Assembly (NCBI GenBank): GCA_030710605.1
Contig: CP092868.1
Span: forward strand, 29,336,011-29,400,010
DNA: 64,000 nt
From: Cordylochernes scorpioides
Taxonomy: Eukaryota; Arthropoda; Arachnida; Pseudoscorpiones; Chernetidae
Reading direction: 5' to 3'
Shown: positions 4,346 through 63,137 of the stretch, in pieces
How positions within the stretch are numbered: the stretch's first letter is position 1
How the letters are laid out: each line of letters begins with the position of its first letter
Notes under the pieces: model-generated
What the model was told of the DNA's origin: nothing
The model's input: only the letters and a program-made list of their open reading frames with translations
Databases searched by the model: none
Position numbers and translations under genes: made by a program

Positions 4346-4469
4346 ATTTTTTTGGTCCTTTCGGGCTTGGAAAAATCAATGTTAGAATATACGTATATAC
4401 ATTTTTTTAAACAAATTCACTTTTAGATACTCTCTTCAAAACAAAACGGATAAGGGGAAAGAGAAAATA

Positions 4470-4925
4470 TATTAACACAAAGCAATAACGCGCCAGATAT
4501 ACATATAAAATGAAAGGATTTAAAAGCACGAATATTTCTTTTATACATAATACAAACTTCTACTGTCCTTACTGCGAGGTAAAAATATATTGGGAGGGCT
4601 TGGCTCATTAGTGGTTAACCCTCCCAGCGGTTTCGCCAATTTAATCCACCAGACCGCTTTTCAGAGCTCTAATACTGTACTGGACGATTCTGCTTATATA
4701 CGCAGCACTGAATGATGGAATCTTAGAAATGTTTTTCAAGAGAACTATGGACATAAGCTTATAAGACAGTAGAATTACATTCAAATATTTGCATCGAGCA
4801 ATGCTCTTCAGCAAACTATAAAGACAAGACCAGTTAGACATAAATTAACACAAAGCAATAACGCGCCATCTATACATATAAAATGAAAGGATTTAAAAGC
4901 ACGAATGTTTCTTATATACTGTTGT
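4470..4925 (-). repeat. S1 subfamily A, full unit plus head-to-tail partial copy
   Basis: On the minus strand, the 3' end of one S1 copy (4925 to about 4848, ending GCTTTGTGTTAA) runs straight into the 5' end of a full copy (TTTATGTCTAACTGG) that continues to 4470. The full unit is about 370 bp. Its hammerhead-like core lies at about 4587-4655, with CTGATGA mutated to CTAATGA and the stems otherwise kept. The junction shows head-to-tail order, as expected if copies arise from a circular or multimeric RNA. Confidence 0.8.
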
Positions 4926-9600: not shown

Positions 9601-9965
9601 ATTAATAAATAACGAATGAAGACATTAAAACGCTAATGTTTCTTTTCGCAAATAAATCAAACTTCTACTGTCCTTACTGAGATGAGAAAATATTGATTAA
9701 ATACAATTTCTAAGATTCCACCCTTCATTGTAGCATATCAAATCAGAATGATTCAATACAATATTAGAGCTCTAAAGAAGCTGATTGGTAGAAAATTGAC
9801 GAAACCGCTGGGAGGGTTCACCACTGATGAACCAAGCCCTCCCAAGATTTTTTCATTGCAGTAAGCCCAGTAGAAAGTTGGTTTATTTGAGAAAAGAAAC
9901 ATTCGCGTCTTAATATCTTTATTCGTTATATATAGATGGCGCCTTATTACTTTGTATTAATTATA
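9600..9965 (+). repeat. S1 subfamily A copy in a composite foldback
   Basis: A minus-strand S1 3' end (9615-9690) is followed by a plus-strand S1 body from about 9690 (GATTCCACCCTTCATTG) to 9962 (GATGGCGCCTTATTACTTTG). The core is at about 9783-9850. CTGATGA and GAAACC are kept; stem III is degenerate. Confidence 0.7.
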
Positions 9966-9974
9966 TCAATAAAT

Positions 9975-10125
9975 TACAATGCATTAGCGTGCCATCTGTT
10001 ATCAAAATTTGAAACTATTATAGACGCGTATGATTCTTTTTAATCAAAGTAAATATTGTTTATTTTTAAAGAGAACCATACGCGTCTATAATAGTTTCGA
10101 ATTTTGATATCAATACATATTGGTA
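9975..10125. repeat. S1 subfamily B foldback end pair
   Basis: Inverted copies of the S1-B 3' end (GCCATCTGTTATCAAAATT ... GAATTTTGATATCA, with GACGCGTATG and CATACGCGTC) meet head to head. The central core has been lost. Confidence 0.7.
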
Positions 10126-15125: not shown

Positions 15126-15329
15126 TTTTTGTTTTTAATATTCGTATATGTGATTAAATAATAGCTATGTAAATTCAGTTATATATTTGCATATCCTACT
15201 GTTTGTAGAATCTAGGGTGGGAAGGAATGTCGGCAATATACGAAGATCAACGCTATCAAACAAATCATAACAATAGATCACTAATATCTCAACACTGTGG
15301 AGAAAATTAGCCACACCTTTGCAATAAAT

Positions 15330-15545
15330 GACGTTATGAAAATTAGAAACTATTTTAGATCCGTACGATTCTTTTTGAAATTTAACAATTTCTACTACCC
15401 TTACTGCAATGGAAAAATTAATGGGATTTTAATTTTTCCATTGCACTAAGGGCAGTAGAAATTGTTTAATTTCAAAAGGAATCTTACGTGTGTAAAATAG
15501 TTTCTAATTTTGATAACAGATGGAGCGCTAGTGCATCATAATATA
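15330..15545. repeat. S1-B foldback
   Basis: TTTCTACTACCCTTACTGCA and its inverse TGCACTAAGGGCAGTAGAAA flank a short centre. The arms end GATAACAGATGGAGCGCTAG and TGCATCATAAT. The hammerhead-like core is deleted. Confidence 0.7.
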
Positions 15546-15834
15546 AATGGCACTCTACTCTGTTAACTAAGTTACAATCCAATATATCCTCTATGTAAGT
15601 AAGTTTCAATATTGTAGCGCTGAATTATTTAATATACGAGTTATCAATACATAGTATCATAGAAGTTCATATCTTACTTAGTTCATTATTTATTTAACAT
15701 AGAATATTGTATATTTTTATAGATCCACTCCTATATATATTTTATTCATAGTGTCATCAGTCTAGTATTGGACTAAAAAGATACTTCATTAAAAATTTAC
15801 GAGTCATATATTTACAGTTAGTCTTATATGAACT

Positions 15835-17235
15835 GTTCGACAAAACTTAAGGAAGTTGTACCTTTTAGCATGTATATCGGGATTCAGACAATAACTCTGA
15901 AATATATTACAGTGACCTTTATTAAAGACACACAAGATAACCAAGTGTGAACAAAATTAAGGAAGTTTTACCTTTCAGTATGTATATCGGGATTCAGACA
16001 ATAACACTGAAAGATATTACAGTGACCTTTATTGAAGACATGCGAGATAACCAAGTGTGAACAAAACTTAAGGAAGTTTTACCTTTCAGCATGTATATCG
16101 GGATTCAGACAATAACACTGAAAGATATTACAGTGACCTTTATTGAAGACATGCGAGATAACCAAGTGTGAACAAAACTTAAGGAAGTTGTACCTTTTAG
16201 CATGTATATCGGGATTCAGACAATAACACTGAAAGATATTACAGTGACCTTTATTGAAGACATGCGAGATAACCAAGTGTGAACAAAACTTAAGGAAGTT
16301 TTACCTTTCAGCATGTATATCGGGATTCAGACAATAACACTGAAAGATATTACAGTGACCTTTATTGAAGACATGCGAGATAACCAAGTGTGAACAAAAC
16401 TTAAGGAAGTTGTACCTTTTAGCATGTATATCGGGATTTAGACAATAACTCTAAAAGATATTACAGTGACCTTTATTGAAGACACACGAGATAACCAAGT
16501 GTGAACAAAACCTAAGGAAGTTGTACCTTTCAGCATGTATATCGGGATTCAGACAATAACACTGAAATATATTACAGTGACCTTTATTGAAGACACACGA
16601 GATAACCAAGTGTGAACAAAACTTAAGGAAGTTGTACCTTTCAGCATGTATATCGGGATTCAGACAATAACTCTGAAAGATATTAAAGTGATCTTTATTG
16701 AAGACACACGAGATAACCAAGTGTGAACAGCACTTAAGGAAGTTTTAGCATGTATATCAGGATTCAGACAATAACTCTGAAAGATATAACAGTGATCTTT
16801 ATTGAAGACACACGAAATAACCAAGTGTGAACAGCACTTAAGGAAGTTTTAGCATGTATATCAGGATTCAGACAATAACTCTGAAAGATATAACAGTGAT
16901 CTTTATTGAAGACACACGAAATAACCAAGCGTGAACAGCACTTAAGGAAGTTTTAGCATGTATATCAGGATTCAGACAATAACTCTGAAAGATATTACAG
17001 TGATCTTTATTGAAGACATACGATATAACCAAGTGTGAACAAGACTTAAGGAAGCTTTACCTTTTAGCAAGCATAGCGGGATTCAGACAATAACTCTGAA
17101 AGATATTACAGTGACCTTTATTGAAGACATACCCGATAACCAAGTGTGAACAAAATTGCCACTGTCTCCAAAAAATATATATAGACGACTAGGAAAATGA
17201 CAGACTTCACTTCCTTAAGTTTTATCTATGAGTGT
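15835..17235 (+). repeat. Satellite array: 12 units of 101-111 bp between Tc1-like ends
   Basis: Units begin AAAACTTAAGGAAGTTGTAC, continue through ATATCGGGATTCAGACAATA and CAGTGACCTTTATTGAAGAC, and end AACCAAGTGTGAAC. Starts fall near 15841, 15951, 16062, 16173, 16284, 16395, 16505, 16616, 16727, 16829, 16935 and 17039. Units 9-11 share GAACAGCACTTAAGG and an 8-10 bp deletion, marking a local duplication. The left end (ACAAAACTTAAGGAAG) and the right end (CTTCCTTAAGTTTTATCTAT, GAGTGTA) are inverted, like short Tc1/mariner ends. Other arrays: 48275-49130, 56080-56500, 58315-58575. Confidence 0.85.
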
Positions 17236-19834: not shown

Positions 19835-21137
19835 CAGGGTGTACGAGGTAAATTGGGACTAACTTTGACAGTCCATAAAACAAAAACTACTTGAGATTAA
19901 AAAATTGTTCTTTTTTCATTACGTAGCCATATTCATGTAAAATGCAACAGTACATGTGTGCGCAGTGTAGTGATGAAGAGTAACCGAGAATTTGAAAATC
20001 GAGCTGCCATCATCGTTGCTCTGCGCGCCGGAAGGAGCCCCAAAGAGATAGTGGATTTTCTTAAGTTGCCCAAAACCACTATTTATCGTGTCAAGAAGCA
20101 GTTTGATGAGGCCGACAGTAACAAAGAGGGGATAGCTACAAGGAAAAAGCACTCGCGTCGATCGGACAGGGTAAGATGCGAAGAATTTGTCAAAAATGTC
20201 AAGGAGAAGATTGATGGAAACCCTGGGAAGAGCATGAGGGCCATAGCCAAGGAAATGGACGTTGGCTCTATGACAATTGTCAGAACTATCCATGAGGACC
20301 TTGGTCTCAAGTCTTATGCCCTTCGGAAAGGTCAGTTGCTGACTGAGAATATGAAGAATAACAGAAAAGGAAAGGCTGCTGCCCTCCTCAACAACCTGAA
20401 ACACGACTCTTTTGGCATGCTAAGGTTCTTCTCTGACGAAAAGAACTTTGACGTGGACCAAAAGGTAAATCCCAGGAATGATCGCTGGATCTGTAAAGAC
20501 CCCTCAGAGATACCTGTCGTGATGCACACGAAATTTCCTGCCTCCGTAATGGTCCTTGGCGTTATCAGCAGTGAAGGTGATGTCATGCCTCCCCATTTCT
20601 TTGAGAAGGGCCTTAGGATGAACGCTGACACCTACATCAATGTTCTGGAGACCGTTGTGAAGCCTTGGATGGACATGGTGGCCGCAGGAAGGAAGTATGT
20701 CTTCCAACAGGACTGAGCTCCAGCCCAGAAGGCAAAAAAGACACAATCGTGGCTGACACTTAACGTCCCTAGTCACTGGGGTCCTGATATTTGGCCCCCT
20801 AATTCTCCAGATTGCAATCCCCTCGACTACTATGTATGGGGCGTTGTTGAGAGAGATGTCAACAAAGCTCCTCATACCACCATCAAGTCTGTCAAGAAAG
20901 CAGTTCACACGGTGATGACCCAAATGGACAAGGTCATCGTCGCCAAGGCCTGTGCTTCATTCCGCACTCGCCTCGAGACTGTTGTAGCTAATAATGGAAA
21001 CTTCATTGAATAAATAAAAACTATATCCTTTTATCTACTACTGTGTCAAATTTCATTCGGATATTTTAATTTTTACTTGCAAAAAATTTCATTTAAAATA
21101 CCATTGTTGAAATTCCCAATTTACCTGGTACACCCTG
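19835..21137 (+). mobile_element. maT-type (DD37D) mariner-like element
   Basis: Inverted ends of about 25 bp (CAGGGTGTACGAGGTAAATT at the left, inverted at 21110-21137) flanked by TA on both sides. The 1.3-kb body carries one transposase gene broken by a single stop. Confidence 0.9.
19958..21013 (+). pseudogene. DD37D (maT) transposase with one in-frame stop
   Basis: The frame opens near 19958 (a second ATG at 19973 gives MKSNREFENRAAIIVAL, the more typical start) and stays in one frame to TAA at 21011-21013 apart from a TGA at 20714-20716. N-terminal HTH: RSPKEIVDFLKLPKTTIYRV, then a second HTH with MRAIAKEMDVGSMTIVRTIH. Catalytic motifs: FFSDEKNFD (first Asp), VFQQD (second Asp, just before the stop) and NSPDCNPLDYYVWG (third Asp). 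Thirty-seven residues lie between the last two Asp, the maT spacing. The TGA falls immediately after the second Asp, at a codon usually Gly in relatives, so the truncated 252-aa product lacks part of the active site. Recent decay of an otherwise complete gene. Confidence 0.9.
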
Positions 21138-23499: not shown

Positions 23500-25150
23500 T
23501 TCACACCTTTACCGGCAACCAATTTTTGTTGTACGAAATTTTCGGTACAAATTTATTGTGTGAGATTTGTTGCACAATTTATATTGTATATGTTGTTCAA
23601 TTTTGTGTTGTACTAGACTTGTTGCAGATTCTTTCTTGTACAATATTTGTTGTTCAATTTTGTTATACTGGTTTGTTTCACAAGATGTCAACACAAAGCA
23701 ATAACGCGCCATCTATACATATAAAATGAAATAATTTAAAAGTACGAATGTTTCTTTTATACATAATACATATTTTTTCATCGCAGTAAGGACAGTTGAA
23801 GTTTGTATTATGTATAAAAGTAACATTCGTGCTTTTAAATTCACAAAATGTGCTTGTGCAATAATTGTGTACAAATTTTTCTGTACAAATATATTGTATA
23901 AGATTTGTTGAACAATTTTTATTGTATATTTTGTTCAATTTTGTGTGTTGTACTAGAATTGTTGCATATTCTTTCTTGTACAATATTTGTTGTTCAATTT
24001 TGTTATACTGGTTTGTTTAACAAGATGTTTGTGCAATATTTGTTGTACAAGATTGTCTATACAATTTTTCTTGTACAAGATTTGTTGTACAATTTTTATT
24101 GTATATGTTGTTCAATTTTGTTATACTGGTTTGTTTCACAAGATGTGCTTGTGCAATATTTGTGTACAAGATATTCTGTACAATTTTTCTTGTACAAGAT
24201 TAGTTGCAAAATTTTTATTGTATATGTTGTTCAATTTTGTGTGTACTAGATTTATTTCACAAGATTTGTTGCATATTCTTTCTTGTACAATATTTGTTGT
24301 TCAATTTTGTTATACTGGTTTGTTCTACAAAATGTGCTTGTGCAATATTTGTGTACAAAATTTGCTGTACAATTTTTCTAAGATTTGTTGCACAATTTTT
24401 ATTGTACAATATATGTTGTTAACTTTTGTTATACTATAATTTTACCTCACAAGATTTGTTGCACAATTCTTTTTGTACAATATTTGTTGTTCAATTTTGT
24501 TATACTGGTTTGTTTCATAAGATCTCTTGCAATATTTGTTGTACAATTTTTTATTGTAAAATATATGTTTTTCCTTTTGTTCTACTAGATTTGTTCCTCA
24601 CAAAATATGTTTCACAATTATTTTTGTACAATATTTGTTGTTCAATTTTGTTATACTGGTTTGTTCCACAAGATGTAATTGTGCAATATTTGTTGTACAA
24701 GATTGTCAGTACAATTTTTCTTGTATAAGATTTTTTGTACAATTTTTATTGTAAAATATTTCGATGCACTAGCGCGCCATCTGTTATCAAATTACAAAAC
24801 TATTTTAGAGGCGTAATATTCTTTTTAAAATAAAACAATTTCTACTGTCCTTACTGCAATGGAAAAATTAAAGGGAGGGCCTGGCTCATCAGTGGTGAAC
24901 CCTCCCAGCGGTTTCGCCAGTTTAATAAAATAAAATAGTTTTGTAAAATATTTGTTTTTCATTCTGCTGTACTAGATTATTTTCTCAAGATTTTTTGTAT
25001 ACAAGATATGATATGCAATTTTTGTCGAACAGGATTTTCTCCGCCATTTTTCTTGTCTAAGATTTGTTTCACAAGATATGTTATACAATATTTGTTGTAC
25101 AATATTTTCTGCGCAATTTTTGTTTAACGAGATTTGCTGAACAATATTTG
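23500..25150. repeat. Degenerate minisatellite (TTGTACAA-rich) with S1 insertions
   Basis: Imperfect units built on TTTGTTGTACAATTTTTATT and TGTTATACTGGTTTGTTTCA repeat over about 1.5 kb. S1-A sequence interrupts at 23690-23850 and an S1-B copy at 24763-24945. Cys/Tyr-rich open frames here follow from the repeat composition and have no coding signature. Confidence 0.7.
24763..24945 (-). repeat. S1-B copy, 3' two thirds
   Basis: On the minus strand CTGGC, GAAACCGC, TGGGAGGGTTCACCA, CTGATGA, GCCAGGCCCTCCC, then the end GATAACAGATGGCGCGCTAG. Stem II is CTGGC with GCCAG, the B-subfamily version. The upstream strand needed for stems I and III is cut off. Confidence 0.75.
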
Positions 25151-29394: not shown

Positions 29395-29680
29395 AAAGTT
29401 TGATTTAATACCATTTCTGAGATTGCAATCTTCAGTGTAGCATATATAAACAGAATCATCCAATACAGTATTAGAGTTCTAAGAAACGGTCTGGTGGATT
29501 AAATTTGGCGAAACCGCTGGGAGAATTCATCACTGATGAGCTAAGCCCTCCCAATAATTTTTCAACGCATTAAAAGCAGTATAAAACTTTGTTTTCTATG
29601 TAAAACAAACATTAATTTATATATATTATCCGATAGATGGCGCAAGCCATCAACAATTTTCAGTTTCCCGATAAGAAGTT
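29395..29680 (+). repeat. S1-A copy with complete three-strand core
   Basis: Core at 29487-29555: AACGGT, C, TGGTGGA, TTGGC, GAA, ACCGCT, TTCATCA, CTGATGA, GCTAA. Stem I keeps pairing through wobbles (TTCATCA), and so does stem II (TTGGC with GCTAA). The end has GATGGCGCAAGCCATCA. Confidence 0.7.
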
Positions 29681-32012: not shown

Positions 32013-32054
32013 TTCTCAACGTTTCGACAAAATCTTTTGTCTTCGTCAGGAGAA
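32013..32054 (-). ncRNA. Hammerhead ribozyme (F1, Penelope tail)
   Basis: Stem I TTCTC with GAGAA, core CTGACGA plus one extra A, stem II GACAAAA with TTTTGTC, then GAA, minimal palindromic stem III ACGT, cleavage base T. Very short stem III is usual in Penelope hammerheads, which are thought to act as dimers. Confidence 0.75.
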
Positions 32055-32061
32055 GTAAATA

Positions 32062-32291
32062 TTCATAGTTCTTTTCCCAAATTCTCGTGATACCCATCCC
32101 TCTAAAAATAATATTTCCTTTTTAAATTTTATATTCCTATGAAATATCTCAATATCATTCCAATCTGGCCTATGTCCTAAAAATAATGCATGTTCCCCAA
32201 TTTTGCTTAACGCCCTTCTTCCCAATAAACCCTGTTGGTGTTCCTTAATTCTGGTCTCTAAATTTCGGCCGGTTTCTCCTACATATATTAC
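32062..32291 (-). pseudogene. Penelope GIY-YIG endonuclease C-terminal domain
   Basis: The minus frame reads VIYVGETGRNLETRIKEHQ, later IGEHALFLGHRPDWNDIEIF, then EILFLEGWVSREF. The Y-x-G-E-T-G-R-x-L-x-(T/I)-R-x-K-E-H block, the EHA-x-x-x-GHRPDW block and the late Glu in FLEGW are the GIY-YIG nuclease of Penelope-like retroelements, which nicks target DNA for priming. The N-terminal GIY part and the whole RT are missing. The frame opens upstream only because it runs into the inverted tail. Confidence 0.85.
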
Positions 32292-32333
32292 TTCTCCTGA
32301 CGAAGACAAAATATTTTGTTGAAACGTTGAGAA
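32292..32333 (+). ncRNA. Hammerhead ribozyme (F1), inverted copy
   Basis: Same layout as 32013-32054 on the plus strand: TTCTC with GAGAA, CTGACGA plus A, stem II GACAAAA with TTTTGTT (one wobble), GAA, ACGT, cleavage base T. Confidence 0.7.
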
Positions 32334-32399
32334 AATAAAAAACTCCAACTGGCCGAAGTGTCTATTTTTTATATAAATATGAATGCCGGCCAGGCAACC

Positions 32400-32755
32400 T
32401 CTATCTTTTCGATATGAATAAATAATTAATTTTTAAAAAGTTGGGGAACTTTTTGATTCTACCTATCCTTGTATATATATTTTAAAATATCCAAAGCGTT
32501 AAGAATTTTGCATGGATAGCAAAATTTGAAGTATAAGAAGATTGAAATGTTGAATATTTTATGATTTTTAATATTATAAAAAAGAGATATATCTCTATAT
32601 ACATAAATTATTCTGACGTATGGTGGTGTCTTATTCATGTAGGAATTTATTATTTTTAATGTTTGTTGGTTCTTTAGACAATTTGGCAATTTAAGCAATT
32701 TTAATGATTATTCTAATCAATTTTTACAAAGGTAGAAAAGATATATAATAAAATA
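32400..32755. other. AT-rich DNA, nothing recognised
   Basis: No repeat or coding signature. Confidence 0.35.
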
Positions 32756-34641: not shown

Positions 34642-35124
34642 ATATTCATAGCAGTGTTCATGATAAGTCACAAGGCCTTTCTGGGTGTAGCACCTTTTAT
34701 TTCCACTAGAGAATCTATATAGCAGTTTTACAGATCTAAGTGTGTTTTACTCTAAAATGCTAAATTAAAACCAATACACATATTCTCTATAAGAGAAATT
34801 TCACTAATCTAATCTTATCAATCAATATTTGTTTTTAGATATATGTAAATATGATATGTATTACAAGATACAATACTAGGCTAACACCAGCTCACTAAAG
34901 TATAAACAAAGATATTAATTATGATGTGTTAGCGCGCCATCTATTATCAAATTTCGTAACTATTATAGAAGCCGGGAGCATATTGATCTAAAGAGACAAA
35001 GGTCGCCTCTCCCGTCAAAATAGACGTCAAAACTAGACGCCATCTATTGACCGTCACCGCAAACTAGCGGTCTCGGGTCAGTGACAAAGCCACAACACCA
35101 GCTTTGGCAAACTGAAAAGCGTCC

Positions 35125-35170
35125 ACCTAGAGACCATGGTTTCGGGCTAATGGCCCTCGTCAGTCTAGGT
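35125..35170 (-). ncRNA. Hammerhead ribozyme, type I, all consensus positions kept (F3)
   Basis: Minus strand: stem I ACCTAGA pairs perfectly with TCTAGGT (7 bp). Core CTGACGA. Stem II GGGC with GCCC around CATTA. GAA, palindromic stem III ACCATGGT, cleavage base C (a GTC triplet, the usual site). Every invariant base is present; position 7 is variable. This is the best ribozyme candidate in the window. Confidence 0.85.
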
Positions 35171-35390: not shown

Positions 35391-35739
35391 GGACGCTTTT
35401 CAGTTTGCCAAAGCTGGTGTTGTGGCTTTGTCACCGACCCGAGACCGCTAGTTTGCGGCGACGGTCAATAGATGGCGTCTAGTTTTGACGTCTATTTTGA
35501 CCGGAGAAGCGACCTTTGTCTCTTTAGATTATAAAAGCGTATGATTTAAAAAAAATTCTACTGGCCTTACTGCAATGAAAAACTCCATTCCTAAATAAAA
35601 TTTTTCCATTGCAGTAAGATCAGTACAAATTGCTTATTTTTAAAAAAGAATCATATGCTTCTATAATAGTTTCGAAAGATATTAATATTGATGAAAAGAT
35701 AATCAAAACAGAATAATTCTTTCATTTGTCAAAAAAGAG

Positions 35740-36565: not shown

Positions 36566-37872
36566 TAGGTATGTCCCATAAGTTCCCGGACTGGGTCCAT
36601 AAAAAAAAGGTAAGATTTTTAAAAAAAATTTTTATTAAAACTTTTCAAAGTAATCCCCCCTTGCTTCAACGCACCAGCGCCATCGTTTCTACCAATTGTC
36701 GAAACAGTTTTTATAAGCCTCTTTTGGAATGCTCTTCAATGCTAACGGCGATTTTTCTATTATTTCATCCCTGGTGTCAAAATGTCTTCCTTTTAGAACT
36801 GCTTTAAGTTTGGGGAACAGGAAAAAGTCATTTGGTGCGATGTCTGGGAAATAGGGTGGTTGAAGTAGGATTTGTGTCCCGTTTTTCGCCAAAAAGCTTG
36901 TCATCAAGTGCGCTGTGTGAGGGCGAGCATTGTCATGGTGTAGGATCAAGCCACCATTAGTCCATTTTTCTGGCCTTTTTTTTCGAATCGCTTCCCTTAG
37001 ACGGCGAAGAATGCCCAAATACATTTCCTTAATAACTGTTTGGCCTGCAGGAAGATACTCGTGATGAACAATGCCCTTGTTATCCAAAAAAACGACCAGC
37101 AACACCTTGTTTCTGGATTTCAATATCCTGGATTTTTTGGGTCTAGGCTCACCCTGACCTCTCCACTCGGCAGATTGACGCTTGGTTTCAGGGTCATAGC
37201 CATAGACCCATGTCTCATCGCCTGTGATTATCTTGTCTTTCCATTCCGGATCCGTTCTTGTCATTTTAAACATGTCTTCACAGGTTGAAAGCCGACACAG
37301 ATTTTGCTCATTAGTGAGGAATCTTGGGATGCATTTTGCAGGAGTCTTTTTGAGCTTCAAATCTTCGGTTACGATCTTTCCAATCGTTGTTTTAGAGATG
37401 CCTGTGTCTTGCTCTAGCTCCAGCAAAGTGGTTCGAGGATTTTCATTTATCAAATCGGTGATTTTTTGCACATTTTATCAGTACTTTGAAATTTTGAGCG
37501 TCCTTGACGAGGAGCATCTTCAATGGAAATTCGGCCAGCTTTAAATCTAGAATGCCATTCAAAAACAATTGTTCTCTTTGGGGAATGCTTTATTAAGCAT
37601 TTAAAAAGTTTCGGTTGCTGATATTTGAAGTTTCACACAAAATTCTATGCAAATCATCTGCTTCAATTTTCGTTCCATCGTAAAATCGCCGCAGCGCTAT
37701 GTGTAACCTTTAAATAAATTAGAATAACTTTGGGGCGCGTGCACGTACCGCCTCGATATTGGTACCACCGTGTAGCCAGATATTTTTTCTATAATAAACA
37801 GTCAAATTCATTTACATTTTTCATTTATTTATTTTTTATGGACCCAGTCCGGGAACTTATGGGACATACCTT
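36566..37872 (-). mobile_element. Mariner element (DD34D) with matched ends
   Basis: AGGTATGTCCCATAAGTTCC at the left and its inverse at 37851-37871; matching continues through GGACTGGGTCCATAAAAAA. TA-rich flanks fit TA insertion. It carries one frameshifted transposase. Confidence 0.9.
36689..37690 (-). pseudogene. Mariner transposase with N-terminal frameshifts
   Basis: The main frame (37471 to 36689, 260 codons) covers the second HTH (TTLLELEQDTGISKTTIGKI) and the catalytic domain: IITGDETWVYGYDP (first Asp), LILHHDNARPHTAH (second Asp) and FPDIAPNDFFLFP (third Asp). Thirty-four residues lie between the last two, the mariner DD34D spacing. The first HTH is encoded upstream (37690 to about 37480; WHSRFKAGRISIEDAPRQGR) in other frames, interrupted by a stop and at least one frameshift near 37470-37480. 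The C-terminus ends at KNCFDNW with a stop, somewhat short. Not functional as it stands. Confidence 0.88.
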
Positions 37873-40319: not shown

Positions 40320-40583
40320 ATATGGTTAATACACATATAAATCAAAATTCGAAACTATTTTAAACGCGTTAAATTCTTTTTGATATTAAACAATTTCTAC
40401 TGCCCTTATTGCCATGGAAAAATTAAAGGGAGGGTCTGGCTCATCAGTGGTGAACCCTCACAGCGGTTTCGCCAGTTTAATCTACCATACCGCTGTTATA
40501 TTGCATTTTTGGAACTTCCTTTCATAGTGATACTGTTGCTACACTCTTGGAATGGGTATTTTAGATGAAATATGGACATAAGC
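40320..40583 (-). repeat. S1-B copy, left of LTR element
   Basis: The minus-strand S1-B core is complete: AGCGGT, A, TGGTAGA, CTGGC, GAA, ACCGCT, TTCACCA, CTGATGA, GCCAG (about 40430-40500). The extra helix is partly mismatched (GTGAGGG with CCCTCCC). Confidence 0.75.
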
Positions 40584-41483: not shown

Positions 41484-43121
41484 TTAACGTCTGTTTCTAA
41501 ACGCTTTCATCCTATCGACATGTACAACTTTCACATCGTGCATGGTGACCCCTCTTACTCTAAAGTTAACATCGGAGACCCTAGCTTCCACACGGAAAGG
41601 CCCATAGACGTTGGAGTAACCTTCAGTCTTAGGAACAGCTAGCATTACCAGATCTCCTCTGTCGAAACTTCTGGAATAAGGTGGCCTAGGATTCATAAGC
41701 TTTTTAGCAGAATTACCTGACATAAACTGTCTGACAGTCTCCTTTGCTTTCCGCATCACCCTTAACCTCTCAGCCCAAGTAGGCTTTCTAAAACTATTAA
41801 CAGACCCAGCGCTACACTCACAGCTTCTGTTAAACTCAGTAGGTGGCAACTTTACAGCCTCGTTTTCAATGCGCTTTACTGATTTCTCCTCGAAGGAGCT
41901 TGAAACCATCGGTCTATGCACACTGGCAACGTAGCTAAGGTCTACATAATCTCGGTCTTCTGGTTTCAAGGAAATCATGTTGCAACGCTCCCGTATGGCA
42001 GGTAACGGGATATTGAATCTCCTTATATCATTGATTCCCAGAATCCCGTCGTAGGCCTTATCTCCGAGTGACATTAGCCAAAACCTTATCTCTCCCAGCT
42101 CAATGCCGTTTTCGTTACCAACTCTACAGGTTTTAACACGTGTAAGTGTCTGCTCTTGGCCTGTCACTGACACTATACGTAAAGTTTTAAGTGCATCGTC
42201 CCAATTCTCCTTCAAGACCTTGCACTTTTCAGAATCAATAATACTGACTTGGCTTCCTGTATCGTATAACAGGTGCCACATATTGCCGTTAATATTCACC
42301 TTAACTATTGGCAGATTTCTAAACTGATTTCCTCCATATGAACGTATGTTCACTATCTCAGCATTGTCAAGAGTATTGCGGTTGAAAAACATAGAAGACT
42401 GTCTTGAGCAATCACTAGCTATATGTCCTAAGCTACACTCAGGTGGACTCAGCCTGATTTCGCCCAACAATTTAGTCAGTTTTTCTACCTCACCCCTAAG
42501 ATCTGCAATACACTGCTCATTTTCGTGCTTCATCCTGTTTACACTGGCACTAAGCATCTTCATCTCACTCTTAATGCTATTTATTTCTTCAACCCCTTCT
42601 ACTGAACATACCCCTTTCATAAAGCTGCAACGGTGTTCTACACTATCCTCCGTGGCCATGACACTGACTGCTTTGTCTATTGATTTAGCCTCACTGCGAA
42701 CAATAGCCTCTCTATACTTATCGAGCACATTTTCGAGGAAAATTTCAAACACTAGGCTATCGTCAAAACTGTACTCTACTTTATCTCTAATGGCCAGGAA
42801 TCTTTCTTTAAAAACCATAGGACTTTCCCCAACTCTCTGCTTAAGACCTTCTATTAATTTAAGGCATTCCCTAATACCACGCGCTTTCTTAGGGTACAAT
42901 ATGTTCAGTTTACTAGCAATACTTTTGAAACTGCTATCGTTACGGATACCCATCTCCTCTAAGCTCAACCTAACTTCAGGGGATAAAGCCTCGAACATGA
43001 GCAATGCTTTGACCTCAGGATCCCATTTGCCTACTCGAGCTTTAAGCTCGACTTCCCGAATGAAAGAATCGAGATTAACCCCATTAAACACTGACAGGTT
43101 AAGCATAGAGTTCACAAACAT
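41484..43121 (-). CDS. Gag-protease fused to integrase C-terminus, 545 aa
   Basis: The first ATG in the frame is at 43121 (MFVNSMLNLSVFNGVNLDSF), 112 bp inside the 5' LTR, so I start there; the open frame extends further upstream without ATG. Residues 1-220: gag-like, with LSLEEMGI and LIEGLKQRVGESPMVFKERF. A heptad-like stretch follows (EINSIKSEMKMLSASVNRMK). A degenerate zinc knuckle CSLGHIASDC lacks the first Cys and one spacer residue. Protease: LLYDTGSQVSII (catalytic DTG) and GILGINDIRRF. The protein then jumps to integrase tail sequence: WAERLRVMRKAKETVRQFM, FDRGDLVMLAVP, YGPFRVEARVSD, VHVDRMKAF. RT, RNase H and the integrase core are missing without loss of frame. Clade (Gypsy versus BEL) is uncertain; the R-x-G-D-x-V and Y-G-P-F pattern favours Gypsy. 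Confidence 0.88.
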   Translation of the reverse strand: MFVNSMLNLSVFNGVNLDSFIREVELKARVGKWDPEVKALLMFEALSPEVRLSLEEMGIRNDSSFKSIASKLNILYPKKARGIRECLKLIEGLKQRVGESPMVFKERFLAIRDKVEYSFDDSLVFEIFLENVLDKYREAIVRSEAKSIDKAVSVMATEDSVEHRCSFMKGVCSVEGVEEINSIKSEMKMLSASVNRMKHENEQCIADLRGEVEKLTKLLGEIRLSPPECSLGHIASDCSRQSSMFFNRNTLDNAEIVNIRSYGGNQFRNLPIVKVNINGNMWHLLYDTGSQVSIIDSEKCKVLKENWDDALKTLRIVSVTGQEQTLTRVKTCRVGNENGIELGEIRFWLMSLGDKAYDGILGINDIRRFNIPLPAIRERCNMISLKPEDRDYVDLSYVASVHRPMVSSSFEEKSVKRIENEAVKLPPTEFNRSCECSAGSVNSFRKPTWAERLRVMRKAKETVRQFMSGNSAKKLMNPRPPYSRSFDRGDLVMLAVPKTEGYSNVYGPFRVEARVSDVNFRVRGVTMHDVKVVHVDRMKAFRNRR

Positions 43122-43233
43122 GATGGAGTACAAAAAAATAGTAATAAACCACTCAATCAAAGAAAAAAAAACGCACGTAAAATTACAGGAATTTACACGT
43201 GCAAACACCAGTAATCCTGGCAGGGCTCGCCAA
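43122..43233 (-). promoter_or_regulatory. LTR element leader with primer-binding-site candidate
   Basis: Directly inside the 5' LTR the minus strand reads TTGGCGAGCCCTGCCAGG. It starts one base in with TGG, as primer-binding sites complementary to a tRNA CCA end do. I cannot name the tRNA. Confidence 0.55.
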
Positions 43234-44250: not shown

Positions 44251-44482
44251 AAATGTAATGATCCAATACAGTATTAGAGCTCTGAGAAGCGGTCTGGTGG
44301 ATTAAATTGGCGAAACCGCTGGGAGGGTTCACCACTGATGAGCCAAGCCCTCCCAATATATTTTTCATCGCAGTAAGGACAGTAGAAGTTCGTTTTATGT
44401 ATAAAAGAAACATTCGCGTTTTTAAATCCTTTTATTTTATATGTATAGATGGCGCGTTATTGCTTTGTGGTAAATATCTTTG
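44250..44482 (+). repeat. S1-A reference copy
   Basis: This copy keeps every part of the hammerhead-like core (44288-44354, listed separately). Its 3' end reads GATGGCGCGTTATTGCTTTG. The 5' third of the unit is absent. Confidence 0.8.
44288..44354 (+). ncRNA. S1 hammerhead-like core with reversed strand order
   Basis: In order: AGCGGT (44288-44293), C (44294), TGGTGGA (44295-44301), linker TTAAA, TTGGC (44307-44311), GAA, ACCGCT (44315-44320), GGGAGGG (44321-44327), TTCACCA (44328-44334), CTGATGA (44335-44341), GCCAA (44342-44346), G, CCCTCCC (44348-44354). AGCGGT pairs with ACCGCT (stem III), TGGTGGA with TTCACCA (stem I, one wobble), TTGGC with GCCAA (stem II), and GGGAGGG with CCCTCCC (extra helix). 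The three hammerhead strands and core are all present but not in any standard circular order. Catalysis is not shown. Confidence 0.5.
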
Positions 44483-44574
44483 TTTACTTTTACTGTTGTC
44501 ATTTATTGAAGTTGTAAATAAAAATTTGTAAATAGACTGACCATTCGCTACACTTTTTAGAGAAAAACTTGTAA

Positions 44575-47495: not shown

Positions 47496-47651
47496 TTTAT
47501 AATATCACTAGCCGAATGACCCGGGCAACGCCCGAGTTTTACCCGATTAAATACTTTTATTCAAATACTATTCGTTACAATTATAAATTGGCGCCGTGGA
47601 TGTCATTCTTGTATAATATATAAATGAGTTTTAAAAATTGTAAAAAAAAAT

Positions 47652-47721
47652 GCATCGGTCGGGAATCGAACCCGGGCCGCCCGCGTGGTAGGCGAGCATT
47701 CTACCACAGAACCACCAATGG
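47652..47721 (-). tRNA. tRNA-Gly-like, anticodon ACC
   Basis: A 70-nt cloverleaf on the minus strand: acceptor CCATTGG with CCGATGC (mismatch at the first pair, one wobble), A-box GGTTCTGTGGTAGAATG, anticodon loop CTACCAC, and B-box GGGTTCGATTCCC. Overall it is tRNA-Gly, normally GCC, with a G34-to-A change. The first-pair mismatch and the Helitron context suggest a captured pseudogene. Confidence 0.7.
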
Positions 47722-48137: not shown

Positions 48138-48274
48138 TTAAGCTTCCTTGAAGCGTTACCAAGAATTTTTTCACATTGTTTCTAGCATCTATTATCTTTC
48201 TTTTTTTTATCCGTTTTAATCACCGTGGTTATATTTTTAGTGATGTATCATAGTTGTAGATGTTTCGTATTTCA

Positions 48275-49135
48275 TATACAATCATTGACAAAACTTAAGG
48301 AAGTTGTACCTTTCAGAATGTATATCGGTATTCAGACAATAACACTGAAAGATATTCCAGTGATCTTTATTGAAGACACACTATATACATTCATGGATAA
48401 AACTTAAGGAAATTGTACCTTTTACCATCTATATTGAGATTCAGACAATAACTCTGAAAGATATTACAGTGACCTTTATAGAAGACACACTAAATACATT
48501 CATGGACAAAACTTAAGGAAGTTGTACCTTTTAGCATGTATATCGGGATTCAGACAATAACTCTGAAAGATATTACAGTGACCTTTATTGAAGACACATT
48601 ATATACATTCATTGACAAAACTCAAGGAAATTGTACCTTTATTCATGTATATCGGGATTCAGACAATAACTCTGAAAGATATTGCAGTGACATTTATTGA
48701 AGACACACTATATACATTCATGGACAAAACTTAAGGAAGTTGTACATTTTATCGTGTATATCGGGATTCAGACAATAACTCTGAAAGATATTACAGTGAT
48801 CTTTATTGAAGACACACTATATACATTCATGAACAAAACTTAAGGAAATTGTAACTTTTAGCATGTATATCGGGATTTAGACAATAACTCTGAAAGTATT
48901 ACAGTGACCTTTATTGAAGACACACGAGATAATCAAGGGTGAACAAAACTTAAGGAAGTTGTACCTTTTAGCATGTATATCGGGATTCAGACAATAACTC
49001 TGAAAGATATTACAGTGACCTTTATTGAAGACACACGAGATAACCAAGTGTGAACAACCTTGACTCTGTCTTCTTTAAAGAAAACAGACTATCGGCAACA
49101 TTAAAATATGAAACTAAGATTTGTCCATGAGTGTA
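48275..49135 (+). repeat. Satellite array, 7 units of about 108-111 bp, in Tc1-like ends
   Basis: Units begin near 48290, 48402, 48510, 48614, 48726, 48834 and 48944. Several end ACACTATATACATTCATGGA, so the unit boundary includes the element end, unlike the AACCAAGTGTG version at 15.8 kb. The final units switch to the CGAGATAACCAAG type. The right end reads TTTGTCCATGAGTGTATA. Confidence 0.85.
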
Positions 49136-52564: not shown

Positions 52565-52933
52565 AATTTTACACAAATAAATTTACTGGCAATGAATGCA
52601 AATACTGGCAATACGATGCAATACCTTGAAATTTATATGTATGTACCTCTACAGACCTATAAGCTTATGTCCATAGTTCACTAAACACCATTTAGCTGCC
52701 TTCCATAGAAAATGCAGGGTATATAACAAAACCAGTCCAATACAATAGTAGAGCGGTCTAGAGATTAATTTGGCGAAACCGCTGAGAGGGTTCACTACTG
52801 ATGAGCCAAGCCCTCTCATTCATTAAATCATATCATTGCAGTAAGGTCTGTAGAGATTTAAAAAAGAAACGCATTGCCAGTAAATTTATTTGTGTAAAAT
52901 TTTAACGATAGAGGGCAATAAAATTTAATTTAC
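52565..52933 (+). mobile_element. S1 variant, full-length 369 bp, with 14-bp target duplication
   Basis: TAATATATAAATGA flanks it at 52551-52564 and 52934-52947. The uninterrupted target is seen in the other Helitron near 47618, which fixes the boundaries. The core is at 52752-52817: AGCGGT, C, TAGAGA, TTGGC, GAA, ACCGCT, GAGAGGG, TTCACTA, CTGATGA, GCCAA, G, CCCTCTC. Ends carry short inverted repeats (ATTTTACACAAATAAATT). Confidence 0.8.
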
Positions 52934-52975: not shown

Positions 52976-53037
52976 TGCATCGGCCGGGAATCGAACCCGG
53001 GGCGCCCGCGTGGCAGGCGAGCATTCTACCACTGAAC
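52976..53037 (-). pseudogene. tRNA-Gly (GCC) remnant in Helitron
   Basis: Minus strand: GGTTCAGTGGTAGAATGC, loop CTGCCAC, GGGTTCGATTCCCGG, 3' acceptor CCGATGC. The 5' acceptor strand is lost to a deletion (TTTTGGTTC in its place). Confidence 0.7.
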
Positions 53038-53104
53038 CAAAAGCAAACGGTGACAGAATTAAGAACGCATGACGCTGATAACTGTATATATTATGGCGAA
53101 GTTC

Positions 53105-56079: not shown

Positions 56080-56505
56080 AAGGACACAGAAGCAATTTTA
56101 TTCACATTTGGTTATCTCGTGTGTCTTCAATAAAGGTCACTGTAATATCTTTCAGAGTTATTGTCTGAATACTGATAGGCATGCTAAAAGGTACAACTTC
56201 CTTAAGTTTTGTCCATCAATGTATCTCGTGTGTCTTTAATAAAGGTCACTGTATTATCTTTCAGAGTTATTGTCTGAATCCCGATATACATGCTCAAAGG
56301 TACAACTTCCTTAAGTTTTGTTCATGAGTGTATATAGTGTGTCTTCAATAAAGGTCACTGTAATATCTTTCAGAGTTATTGTCTGAATCCTGATAGGCAT
56401 GATAAAAAGTAATACTTCCTTAAGTTTTGTCCATGAGTGTATAATACTTTTCAAGATTGTGATATAACATACTTTAAAGACTTCACACTTAAGTTTTGTC
56501 CATGA
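56080..56505 (-). repeat. Satellite array, about 4 units, minus orientation
   Basis: CTTTCAGAGTTATTGTCTGA and CTTCCTTAAGTTTTGTCCAT repeat with a period of about 112 bp. The last unit lacks most of its middle. Confidence 0.8.
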
Positions 56506-58144: not shown

Positions 58145-58315
58145 CATATTTCATTTATCAAAATTCGAAACTATTTTAAAGGCGTAAGATTATTTTTTAT
58201 ATTAAACTATTTCTACTGCCTTTACTGCAAAAGAAAAATTAATGAGAGGGCCCCTGGCTCATCAGTGGTGAACCCTCTCAGCGGTTTCGCCAGTTTAATC
58301 TACCATTAACATACC
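58145..58315 (-). repeat. S1-B copy
   Basis: CTGGC with GCCAG and GAGAGGG with CCCTCTC are kept on the minus strand. Cut at TGGTAGATT, so stem III is incomplete. Confidence 0.7.
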
Positions 58316-58575
58316 ATATACAGAGTTATTGTCTGAATCCCGATATACATGCTAAAAGGTACAACTTCCTTAAGTTCGTCCATGAGTGTATATAGTGTGT
58401 CTTCAATAAAGGTCACTGTAATATCTTTCAGAGTTATTGTCTGAATCCTGATATACATGATAGAAGGTACAACTTCCTTAAGTTTTGTCCAAGAGTGTAT
58501 ATAGTGTATCTTCAACAAAGGTCACTTTAATATCTTTCAGAGTTATTGTCTGAATCCTGATAGGCATTATATATT
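58315..58575 (-). repeat. Satellite units, about 2.3
   Basis: Same 110-bp unit as 56080, minus orientation. Confidence 0.8.
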
Positions 58576-58587
58576 TATAAATGTATG

Positions 58588-58885
58588 TAATTCTACTGTC
58601 CTCTAAGCTTATGTCCATAGTTCTTCTAAAATACCCATTCAAAGAGTCTACAACAGTATCACTAAAAAAGGAAGTTCCAAAAATGCAATATAACAGCGGT
58701 ATGGTAGATTACACTGGCGAAACCGCTGGGAGGGTTCACCACTGATGAGCCAGGCCCTCTCATTAATTTTTCCATTACAGTAAGAGCAGTAGAAATTATT
58801 TAATATAAAAAAGAATCTCACGCCTTTAAAATAGTTTCGAATTTTGATAACAAATGGCGCGCTAGTGCATCATATTTCATTTATC
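58588..58885 (+). repeat. S1-B reference copy
   Basis: The core lies at 58695-58761: AGCGGT, A, TGGTAGA, CTGGC, GAA, ACCGCT, GGGAGGG, TTCACCA, CTGATGA, GCCAG, G, CCCTCTC. Upstream TAAGCTTATGTCCATAGTTC and the end GATAACAAATGGCGCGCTAG are present. The cleavage-position base is A, versus C in S1-A. Confidence 0.8.
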
Positions 58886-59171: not shown

Positions 59172-59482
59172 ATAAAACGACATTTGAAATACTATCCCGC
59201 ATGTATTTCTTTTCAACGAAAAATCAAATTTTATTTCAAGGAGAAATAACGATTATTTCTAACCTTTTGAATGAGGTATGAAAGAGTGAATTGTGAAGAG
59301 TAATGATAAACGGAAAAATAAAAGTATCCAGGGATGGGAATCGAACCCACAGTGTTCCGCTTACTGGGCAGATGCCATGTCTACTAGGCTACCCTGGACA
59401 TATTTTTCCGTTCGTAAATAATACATAAAGTAATTTATAATACAATATAATATAATGCGGCTTGTGATTGTAAAACGACATA
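59172..59482 (-). mobile_element. SF2 element with complete tRNA-like unit
   Basis: TIR-like ends AAAACGACATTTGAAATA and GATTGTAAAACGACAT. Body ATCAAATTTTATTTCAAGG, GAGGTATGAAAGAGTGAA, then the tRNA-like unit. Confidence 0.65.
59327..59398 (-). tRNA. tRNA-like cloverleaf, anticodon loop CCAGTAA
   Basis: 72 nt on the minus strand. The acceptor stem TCCAGGG with CCCTGGA is perfect. D arm GCC with GGC, box A TAGCCTAGTAGAC, anticodon stem TCTGC with GCGGA, T stem GTGGG with CCCAT, B box GGGTTCGATTCCC. The anticodon would be AGT (Thr), but position 33 is C rather than the near-universal U. This suggests a tRNA-derived element rather than a working tRNA. Confidence 0.6.
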
Positions 59483-62779: not shown

Positions 62780-63137
62780 ATAAAAATAAAGAAGGCATTT
62801 CCTGACCACAAGCACATGTGCTTTTTAGATGGCAGAGCGCCATCTAGTGGAGCAAAAATAAACTAAACGTTTATTTAGCTTTCTCCGTGATATTTGGCCA
62901 ACCCAATTTCTTGATAAATCAAGAAAAGCCATCCACGAACGCGTTTCGCGCTGTTGGCGCTCGTCAGCGTGGAGCAACGCTATTACGGAGCAATCTAAAT
63001 AAATGTTTAGTTTATTTTTGCTCCACTAGATGGCGCTCTGCCATCTAAAAAGCACATGTGCTTGTGGTCAGGAAATGCCTTCTTTATTTTTAATATCAAC
63101 ACCTTACCTACTTATCTTTTTTTTTCTATTGTTTTTT
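62780..63137. mobile_element. F2 element with 12-bp target duplication
   Basis: ATATGTCATAAT flanks both ends (about 62768-62779 and 63138-63149). The left arm (minus) carries the best F2 hammerhead. It then joins an inverted F2 3' arm at GGAGCAACGCTATTACGGAG. Two CTCF-core-like sites face each other (62837-62850 minus, 63023-63036 plus). Confidence 0.8.
62933..62972 (-). ncRNA. Hammerhead ribozyme, type I, complete (F2)
   Basis: Stem I CCACG with CGTGG (5 bp), core CTGACGA, stem II GCGC with GCGC around CAACA, GAA, palindromic stem III ACGCGT, cleavage base T. All invariant bases kept. Confidence 0.83.

What the first reader, a model, noticed from the sequence alone, without database searches (positions are those of the whole stretch)
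44288..44354. S1 repeats carry all three hammerhead strands in reversed order, with covarying stems
Seen: S1-A has AGCGGT-C-TGGTGGA, then TTGGC-GAA-ACCGCT, then TTCACCA-CTGATGA-GCCAA. These are exactly the three hammerhead strands, with stems I, II, III and a cleavage-site base. Covariation between copies: stem II is TTGGC/GCCAA in S1-A and CTGGC/GCCAG in S1-B (24.8, 40.4, 58.2, 58.7 kb). Stem I UGG/CCA becomes UAG/CUA at 52.76 kb. The extra helix GGGAGGG/CCCTCCC becomes GAGAGGG/CCCTCTC. The cleavage base is C in S1-A and A in S1-B, both allowed. Known: standard hammerheads are circular permutations of one order; this order is the reverse, so every helix crosses the others, and stem III and the extra helix are directly adjacent. 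Inference: a pseudoknotted, kissing-loop or intermolecular hammerhead, or an RNA with another role that kept the boxes.
Basis: partly seen in the sequence, partly recalled or inferred. Interest (0 to 1): 0.9.

Follow-up and report, generated by a model that had tools for sequence, protein, structure and literature searches.

The report
Scrambled-order hammerhead ribozyme in mobile DNA
A self-cutting RNA whose three catalytic pieces come in an order so far reported from environmental RNA appears here in tens of thousands of copies of a small mobile DNA element in one eukaryotic genome, which gives this RNA a genomic home in which it can be studied.

Summary
Window 44288-44354 carries all three hammerhead strands in the order S-G-C, the core consensus bases, stems I-III, and a fourth helix. 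A descriptor for all six block orders found nothing in 100 shuffles of the window.

The order is not new to science. It is the type-SGC non-circularly permuted hammerhead of Eckert et al. 2023 (PMC10085705), shown there to self-cleave, with all four helices needed. [quoted passage not shown]

What is new here is the carrier. The 2.62-Gb genome of the window holds three SGC subfamilies: A 26,522, B 13,273 and C 9,798 copies within 3 mismatches, controls 0. Units stand alone, in inverted pairs, or head to tail as 372-bp (A) or 367-bp (C) monomers, one ribozyme each. Nineteen of 44 copies have candidate target-site duplications of 11 bp or more, against 5.3% of swapped controls; one end has an optional ~30-bp tail.

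Best reading: a non-autonomous, retrozyme-like, probably Penelope-mobilised element that uses an SGC hammerhead to cut multimeric transcripts. Cleavage, circular RNA and host species are untested.

The parts
44288..44293 (+). Block S: 3' strand of stem III (AGCGGT, U16.1 last)
   Evidence: pairs with 44315-44320
44294..44294 (+). H17 = C, predicted cleavage after this base
   Evidence: in 43 distinct copies H17 is C 21, A 18, T 3, G 1
44295..44301 (+). Block S: 5' strand of stem I (TGGTGGA)
   Evidence: pairs with 44328-44334; G-C to A-U double change in subfamily C
44302..44306 (+). TTAAA linker between the far ends of stems I and II
   Evidence: published SGC linker is typically 3 nt
44307..44311 (+). 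Block G: 3' strand of stem II (TTGGC, C11.1 last)
   Evidence: pairs with 44342-44346; outer pair UA/CG
44312..44314 (+). Block G: conserved GAA (G12 A13 A14)
   Evidence: 41, 42 and 42 of 43 distinct copies
44315..44320 (+). Block G: 5' strand of stem III (ACCGCT)
   Evidence: per pair 91-100% of up to 43 distinct copies paired
44321..44327 (+). Helix IV 5' strand (GGGAGGG), abutting stem III with 0 nt
   Evidence: second pair GC 25, AU 11, GU 4, unpaired 3 of 43 distinct copies
44328..44334 (+). Block C: 3' strand of stem I (TTCACCA)
44335..44341 (+). Block C: CTGATGA catalytic box
44342..44346 (+). Block C: 5' strand of stem II (GCCAA, G10.1 first)
44348..44354 (+). Helix IV 3' strand (CCCTCCC)
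44355..44472 (+). Right arm R of the element, ending in the optional tail (TAGATGGCGCGTTATTGCTTTGTG, about 44447-44472)
   Evidence: R profile hit 44353-44494 (this copy was among the six profile seeds); end types
4591..4659 (-). S1-A copy with CTAATGA (decayed core); the fuller element, with a direct repeat of R+tail 373 bp upstream, lies in 4454-4917
29484..29553 (+). S1-A copy with all three core blocks, helix IV partly decayed
40427..40495 (-). S1-B copy with all three blocks (H17 = A)
58694..58762 (+). S1-B copy with all three blocks (H17 = A)
52751..52818 (+). S1-C copy: stem I UAG/CUA, helix IV GAGAGGG/CCCTCTC (did not meet the strict descriptor)
52647..52658 (+). 5' strand of a 12-bp helix enclosing the ribozyme in subfamily C (CTCTACAGACCT)
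   Evidence: partner at 52844-52855
52844..52855 (+). 3' strand of the enclosing helix (AGGTCTGTAGAG)
9606..9983 (+). S1-A element with an inverted R arm without tail (9691-9606), decayed ribozyme (9778-9844) and right R arm with tail (9842-9983)
24872..24940 (-). S1-B copy, block S lost
58243..58313 (-). S1-B copy, block S lost, GG insertion before helix IV 3' strand
35125..35170 (-). Classical type I (CGS) hammerhead with self-complementary stem III, in another repeat family; for comparison

Best explanation
Each intact S1 unit encodes a type-SGC (non-circularly permuted, pseudoknotted) hammerhead ribozyme. The ribozyme sits in a non-coding, non-autonomous mobile element of 372 bp (subfamily A) or 367 bp (subfamily C), built like an animal retrozyme and inserted like a Penelope-like element. 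Shown: block order, core bases, four helices, subfamily-level compensations, head-to-tail arrays, inverted pairs, candidate target-site duplications, an optional ~30-bp tail, and about 49,600 close copies in one genome. Inferred: multimeric transcripts of tandem copies cut themselves after H17 (44294) in each unit, the 372-nt monomers can be ligated to circles, and a Penelope-type reverse transcriptase supplied in trans copies them back into AT-rich sites from one of a few start points, which produces the tailed and tailless ends and the direct or inverted partial tandems.
For: Core and order: (0 in 100 shuffles). Same anatomy as published SGC ribozymes, including the fourth helix and the 0-nt junction of stem III with it. 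Genome counts: 15,813 exact 43-mers; A 26,522, B 13,273, C 9,798 within 3 mismatches; reversed-pattern control 0 each time. Arrays: the stretch C1:7155901-7162400 has 15 boxes CTGATGAGCCA and 14 exact full ribozymes at 372-bp spacing or a multiple; of the 100 exact A copies listed, 27 have a same-strand neighbour at 370-374 bp, 20 an inverted one within 1.1 kb, 53 neither; subfamily C spacing 367-368 in one array. Conservation between subfamilies: A vs B ribozyme 61/67 identical, upstream 83/141, downstream 85/115 (Fisher p 1.7e-5); A vs C ribozyme 60/66, rest 177/284 (p 2e-6). Compensation: four of the six A/B differences are two compensated pairs (stem II outer, helix IV second); two or more such pairs arise in 0.1-0.2% of random six-change sets, 1.2% if only transitions are allowed. 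Candidate TSDs: 19 of 44 vs 5.3% of 1,892 swapped pairs. Tail resembles the optional 30-40-bp PLE tail. A GIY-YIG ORF is in the window, and a classical type I hammerhead family of 15,168 copies is in the same genome.
Against: No RNA evidence at all: transcription, cleavage and circles were not testable. In the window set alone the covariation measures are not exceptional (26, 268, 407 and 145 of 500 shuffles reach four of the five measures). Subfamily B has an A-C mismatch in stem I in its commonest sequence and subfamily C a one-base deletion there, so stem I is weak in two of three subfamilies. The monomer RNA is not unusually stable (z -1.14). Of 100 listed exact copies only 27 are in tandem with another exact copy. 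S1 itself has no reverse transcriptase, so the mobilising enzyme is guessed. 25 of 44 copies gave no candidate TSD of 11 bp. Compensated changes come from three subfamilies, so the number of independent events is small.
Confidence: 0.8

Rival explanations
1. Cross-unit classical hammerhead. In tandem transcripts, blocks S and C of one unit and block G of the next (S1-C1-G2, a type III order) or G of one with S and C of the next (type II order) can form an ordinary, unknotted hammerhead, so the SGC order within one unit would be incidental.
For: Head-to-tail arrays exist, so the needed blocks are present in one transcript if arrays are transcribed; this follows from the block order alone.
Against: Published SGC monomers cleave in cis and, in the one tested by mutation, need the fourth helix. 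73 of 100 listed exact copies have no exact same-strand neighbour at 370-374 bp, yet keep the whole ribozyme. Stem II would have to close a loop of about 330 nt.
Confidence: 0.12
2. Decayed relic: the hammerhead blocks are inherited but inactive, and the repeat spreads as an ordinary MITE with inverted repeats by a Tc1/mariner-like transposase.
For: Inverted arms and palindromic copies without ribozyme exist; Tc1/mariner-type transposase ORFs are in the window; 10 of 15 window copies have a damaged core.
Against: Candidate TSDs are 11-16 bp and variable, not TA; both direct arrays and inverted forms occur, and one end is optional.
Confidence: 0.06
3. The pairing pattern is chance or reflects another RNA function that only resembles a hammerhead.
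For: Rfam has no matching family.
Against: The core consensus bases including G10.1-C11.1 and A15.1-U16.1 are present; 0 hits in 100 shuffles; anatomy equals a published, experimentally tested class.
Confidence: 0.02

Closest known systems
Type-SGC hammerhead ribozyme, HRIMA-1 motif and variants (Eckert et al. 2023, PMC10085705)
   Same: Block order S-G-C, core bases, stems I-III, a fourth helix tying the other sides of stems I and II; direct stem III-helix IV junction as in a few published members
   Different: Almost all motifs of that paper were exclusive to metatranscriptomes and none was found in the genome of a known organism except a type-GCS candidate; here it is chromosomal DNA, tens of thousands of copies, within a mobile element; linker I-II is 5 nt rather than about 3; H17 is C, A or T
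Metazoan non-LTR retrozymes (Cervera and de la Pena 2020, PMC7229834, passages seen)
   Same: Small tandem monomers (150-450 bp) with one hammerhead each, GC below 45%, TSDs longer than 4 bp when present
   Different: Those carry classical type I hammerheads; here the ribozyme is SGC. Inverted pairs and an optional tail are prominent. RNA circles not shown
Penelope-like elements with hammerheads in pLTRs (PMC11167929, passages seen; Cervera and de la Pena 2014, recalled and cited therein)
   Same: Direct and partial tandem repeats, optional 30-40-bp tail, AT-rich insertion ends, hammerhead in the repeated part
   Different: S1 encodes no RT or GIY-YIG protein and its ribozyme has another topology; that Penelope pLTRs can be inverted is from my recall
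Classical type I hammerheads in the same window (35125-35170-, 62917-62985-)
   Same: Same genome, high copy number (15,168 for the first), elements with inverted arms
   Different: CGS order, self-complementary stem III, different element ends

Membership tests
Type-SGC hammerhead ribozyme | Block order S, G, C with no long insertion inside a block | tested here: met
Type-SGC hammerhead ribozyme | CUGANGA, GAA, G10.1-C11.1, A15.1-U16.1, H17 not G | tested here: met
   present in the commonest sequences of S1-A, B and C; each fixed core position 39-43 of 43 distinct copies, H17 G in 1 of 43
Type-SGC hammerhead ribozyme | Stems I, II, III and the fourth helix | tested here: met
   44.3-kb copy: I 7-8, II 5, III 6 bp, IV 7 bp by sequence; but stem I has an A-C mismatch in B and a deletion in C
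Type-SGC hammerhead ribozyme | Significant covariation of the helices | tested here: inconclusive
   compensated pairs in stems I (C), II (B) and IV (B, C) but few independent events; window score reached by 26/500 shuffles; R-scape not run
Type-SGC hammerhead ribozyme | Self-cleavage after H17 | not testable with these tools
   needs an in-vitro assay
Metazoan retrozyme | Tandem monomers of 150-450 bp, one hammerhead each, GC < 45%, no coding capacity | tested here: met
   372 and 367 bp, GC 0.368 and 0.349, longest stop-free run 74 and 56 aa in three tandem units of one A and one C monomer; many copies are not tandem
Metazoan retrozyme | Classical type I hammerhead | tested here: not met
   order is SGC
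Metazoan retrozyme | TSDs longer than 4 bp when present | tested here: met
   19 of 44 copies with a shared word of >= 11 bp vs 5.3% of swapped controls
Metazoan retrozyme | Circular RNA | not testable with these tools
   no RNA data held
Penelope-like element | Own RT plus GIY-YIG protein | tested here: not met
   no long ORF in the two monomers examined; GIY-YIG ORF 32046-32432 lies in another element
Penelope-like element | Direct or partial tandem repeats and optional 30-40-bp tail | tested here: met
   A ends fall at 25-39 (12 copies) or 60-64 (3) of the test segment, B ends at about 15-19 (5), 30-39 (7) and 50-57 (17, where the 57-nt test segment itself stops)

The most novel reading that the evidence does not exclude
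A distinct class of mobile element whose life cycle runs on a non-circularly permuted, pseudoknotted hammerhead: SGC retrozymes that cut tandem transcripts into 367-372-nt monomers, have reached about 50,000 copies in one eukaryotic genome, and share that genome with a classical type I hammerhead element. The SGC ribozyme would thus have a DNA-genome host and a biological role, and its rise could be traced in genomes. In tandem transcripts the same blocks could also switch between the knotted in-unit fold and an unknotted cross-unit fold.
Probability: 0.6. Interest if true: 0.85.

Novelty: new variant of a known kind. Interest (0 to 1): 0.75.

Why it matters
Type-SGC hammerheads were described from environmental RNA without known hosts, and how the permutations evolved was left open (PMC10085705). 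Finding them as the best conserved part of a high-copy mobile element in an assembled genome gives them a host, a carrier and a testable role, and supplies thousands of natural variants, including the 0-nt stem III-helix IV junction that the discoverers found hard to fit to the crystal structure. It also suggests that retrozyme-like elements are not tied to classical hammerhead topology.

Tried and rejected
Rejected: chance; another Rfam RNA (the SNORD74 match at E 0.24 scores 17 bits against a cut-off of 41); coding remnant (no Pfam hit for the ORF over the region); simple MITE (candidate TSDs long and variable, arrays, optional end). A shared tail as proof of one mobilising enzyme for the S1 and classical families was dropped: at 34.9-35.5 kb the R end beside the classical element looks like an older R copy into which it inserted.

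Led nowhere: scans of viral contigs and genome contigs for the S1 core (0 matches); DNA search with the 52.7-kb copy (no candidates, although the pattern search finds 9,798); two haemocyanin families to place the organism (nothing rang, in the 14 controls neither); the GIY-YIG protein against the PDB (one match at E 0.94) and against the genome (not completed). Paper searches (judged by titles and starts of abstracts, full text seen only as stated) list no paper besides PMC10085705 that appears to report natural SGC ribozymes; two further papers (PMC11472068, PMC13355120) mention non-circular permutations and were not opened. Preprints and most subscription journals are not held.

Weak points: loci were fetched by similarity, mostly to S1-A and S1-B, and are not a random sample; 10 duplicate or in-window loci were left out before that count, some remaining loci overlap (L032/L038), and 28 of 153 hits were not near full length; the 43 distinct rows are the basis of the pair counts. 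In one search, 6 of 50 loci were dropped (one in the window, five that run on into a next unit). In one search, positions without a majority base and gaps were dropped before the identity counts. In A1 copy 58243-58313 is misaligned at helix IV because of a GG insertion, so its helix IV cells are off register. The three genome counts are for separate patterns; a few copies may fit two of them. One search counts only neighbours that are themselves exact. The first attempt at the enclosing helix used a wrong register; one search replaces it and picks the best of five registers per copy, which favours pairing.

Full report
CHECK OF THE OBSERVATION. Its three blocks are S (AGCGGT-C-TGGTGGA), G (TTGGC-GAA-ACCGCT) and C (TTCACCA-CTGATGA-GCCAA), in the order S-G-C, with a 7-bp helix GGGAGGG/CCCTCCC that starts directly after stem III and closes one base after stem II. 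From BLAST and alignment I extracted 15 related copies of this region in the window. Five of the 15 keep all three core blocks. A scan with a descriptor of the hammerhead core (CTGANGA, GAAA, G10.1-C11.1, T16.1, H17, stems of at least 4 bp and 15 bp in total) for all six possible block orders found 4 SGC and 2 classical CGS hits in the window and none in 100 dinucleotide shuffles. The motif is therefore not chance. Rfam has no matching family.

COVARIATION. On the 15 window copies the named structure has 80.1% paired cells, against 34-52% when the partner strand is slid by 1-3 columns, and double changes in stems I, II and IV. The covariation score was still reached by 26 of 500 column shuffles, the count of pairs with a change on both sides by 268, the number of further pair types by 407 and the percentage paired by 145. 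Among 43 distinct near-full copies from the window and fetched loci, the stem II outer pair is UA 26, CG 15, UG 1, CA 1 and the helix IV second pair is GC 25, AU 11, GU 4, AC 2, UC 1. The claim that the S1-B cleavage base is A rests on two window copies, since two of the four S1-B copies have lost block S; in fetched S1-B loci it holds. Against the reading, the commonest S1-B sequence has an A-C mismatch in stem I (23 of 43 distinct copies).

WHAT IT IS. This order is the type-SGC non-circularly permuted hammerhead described by Eckert and co-workers in 2023 (PMC10085705; I read the abstract, parts 2-5 of 8 of the text, the first part of the discussion and some passages, not the supplements). 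[quoted passage not shown] They state that in a few members stem III and that helix join with no intervening nucleotide, which is not obviously compatible with the crystal structure. S1 has that junction. [quoted passage not shown]

THE CARRIER IN THE GENOME. The window lies in an assembly of 2.62 Gb in 24 contigs. The 43-nt string from GAA to the end of helix IV occurs 15,813 times exactly, the reversed control 0 times. Within 3 mismatches, subfamily A counts 26,522, B 13,273 and C (the 52.75-kb type) 9,798, controls 0. On contig C1 at 7.156-7.162 Mb there are 11 boxes CTGATGAGCCA on one strand and 4 on the other, spaced 372 bp or a multiple of it within each strand, with 14 exact 67-mers. 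Of the 100 exact A copies that one search lists, all on C1, 27 have an exact same-strand neighbour at 370-374 bp (six clusters of 2, 2, 3, 3, 3 and 14), 20 an inverted one within 1.1 kb and 53 neither. A subfamily C array on C1 has 367-368-bp spacing. The two monomers examined have GC 0.368 and 0.349 and no stop-free run above 74 aa in three tandem units. In four 10-kb stretches taken at arbitrary places, the ribozyme profile had 8 hits, in three of the four.

HOW THE ELEMENT MOVES. Around the ribozyme lie a left part and a right arm R. Copies end either at a point in R or about 30 bp further, after AGATGGCGCG; subfamily B has a further, earlier end point. Penelope-like elements have an optional 30-40-bp tail in a fraction of copies and lie in direct or partial tandems (PMC11167929, passages). 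Nineteen of 44 copies share a word of at least 11 bp between the right junction and the 780 bp upstream of the unit's core, against 5.3% of 1,892 swapped pairs; examples are TATAATCTATAAT in L022 and ACAATTAAATGTGAT in L056. A 14-bp pair flanks the L083 array (by eye). The window also holds a GIY-YIG ORF at 32046-32432(-), E 8.5e-06 and above the Pfam cut-off, flanked by inverted repeats that contain a minimal hammerhead-like string (read by eye). The genome carries 15,168 copies of a classical type I hammerhead within 3 mismatches. I therefore infer a non-autonomous retrozyme mobilised by a Penelope-type enzyme; the enzyme itself is not identified.

SELECTION ON THE RIBOZYME. Between the A and B consensus the ribozyme is 61/67 identical and without gaps, while upstream it is 83/141 and downstream 85/115 (Fisher p 1.7e-5). 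Between single A and C monomers it is 60/66 against 177/284 elsewhere (p 2e-6). Of the six A/B differences, one is H17 C to A, which is allowed, one breaks a stem I pair, and four form two compensated pairs. Two or more compensated pairs appear in 495 of 400,000 random six-change sets, 971 of 400,000 if core positions are spared, and 4,831 of 400,000 if only transitions are allowed. These tests treat positions as independent and rest on three lineages.

A FIFTH HELIX. Twelve bases left of the ribozyme pair with twelve in R: TTCTACTGTCCT/AGGACAGTAGAA in A, the same with one G-U pair in B, and CTCTACAGACCT/AGGTCTGTAGAG in C, which is three compensated changes (49 copies, 22 distinct pairs of strands; per position 15-21 of 22 pairs stand, and the register was chosen for best pairing). 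It encloses the ribozyme and suggests that the whole monomer RNA folds as a unit, but inverted-repeat exchange at the DNA level could give the same pattern. The monomer's predicted folding energy is not unusual (z -1.14).

HOW IT PROBABLY WORKS. Shown here: anatomy, copy number, arrays, conservation. Known for the class: in-cis cleavage after H17. Inferred: tandem transcripts are cut to 372-nt monomers, possibly circularised as in animal retrozymes (PMC7229834, passages), and copied back. An alternative in arrays is a classical hammerhead made across units; the monomer-dimer comparison decides.

VERDICT. The ribozyme class is already known; its existence as a high-copy genomic mobile element of retrozyme type is, as far as the listings of my searches show, not described. 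The species was not identified.

Noticed in passing
35125-35170 (-): Classical type I hammerhead with self-complementary stem III (ACCATGGT) in an inverted-arm repeat; 15,168 copies within 3 mismatches genome-wide. Its insertion splits an R arm at 34972/35529 with about 10 profile positions of R present on both sides.
   Followed up: partly
62917-62985 (-): Second classical type I hammerhead, stem III ACGCGT self-complementary, in a palindromic repeat; weak Rfam HH9 match (26 bits, cut-off 52).
   Followed up: no
32046-32432 (-): GIY-YIG ORF between inverted repeats that contain CTCCTGACGAAGACAAAAGATTTTGTCGAAACGTTGAG, which looks by eye like a minimal Penelope-type hammerhead: probably a Penelope-like remnant.
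   Followed up: partly
52647-52658 with 52844-52855; L083: A 12-bp helix enclosing the ribozyme, with three compensated pair changes between subfamilies A and C.
   Followed up: partly
15313-15571, 23668-23860, 35520-35703: Palindromic R-R copies that lack the ribozyme altogether, MITE-like.
   Followed up: no
15840-17155, 48274-49036, 56113-56442, 58321-58562: 109-111-bp tandem repeat whose unit looks shared between these places, one of them between two inverted S1-B copies.
   Followed up: no
47651-47721, 52976-53044, 59326-59398 (-): Three tRNA genes (Gly, Gly, Thr) in a repeat-rich window.
   Followed up: no
909-1940 (-), 19958-20716 (+), 36689-37471 (-), 41484-43208 (-): Tc1/mariner-type transposase ORFs or parts of them, and a retroelement ORF with aspartyl protease and integrase p58 C-terminal matches.
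   Followed up: no
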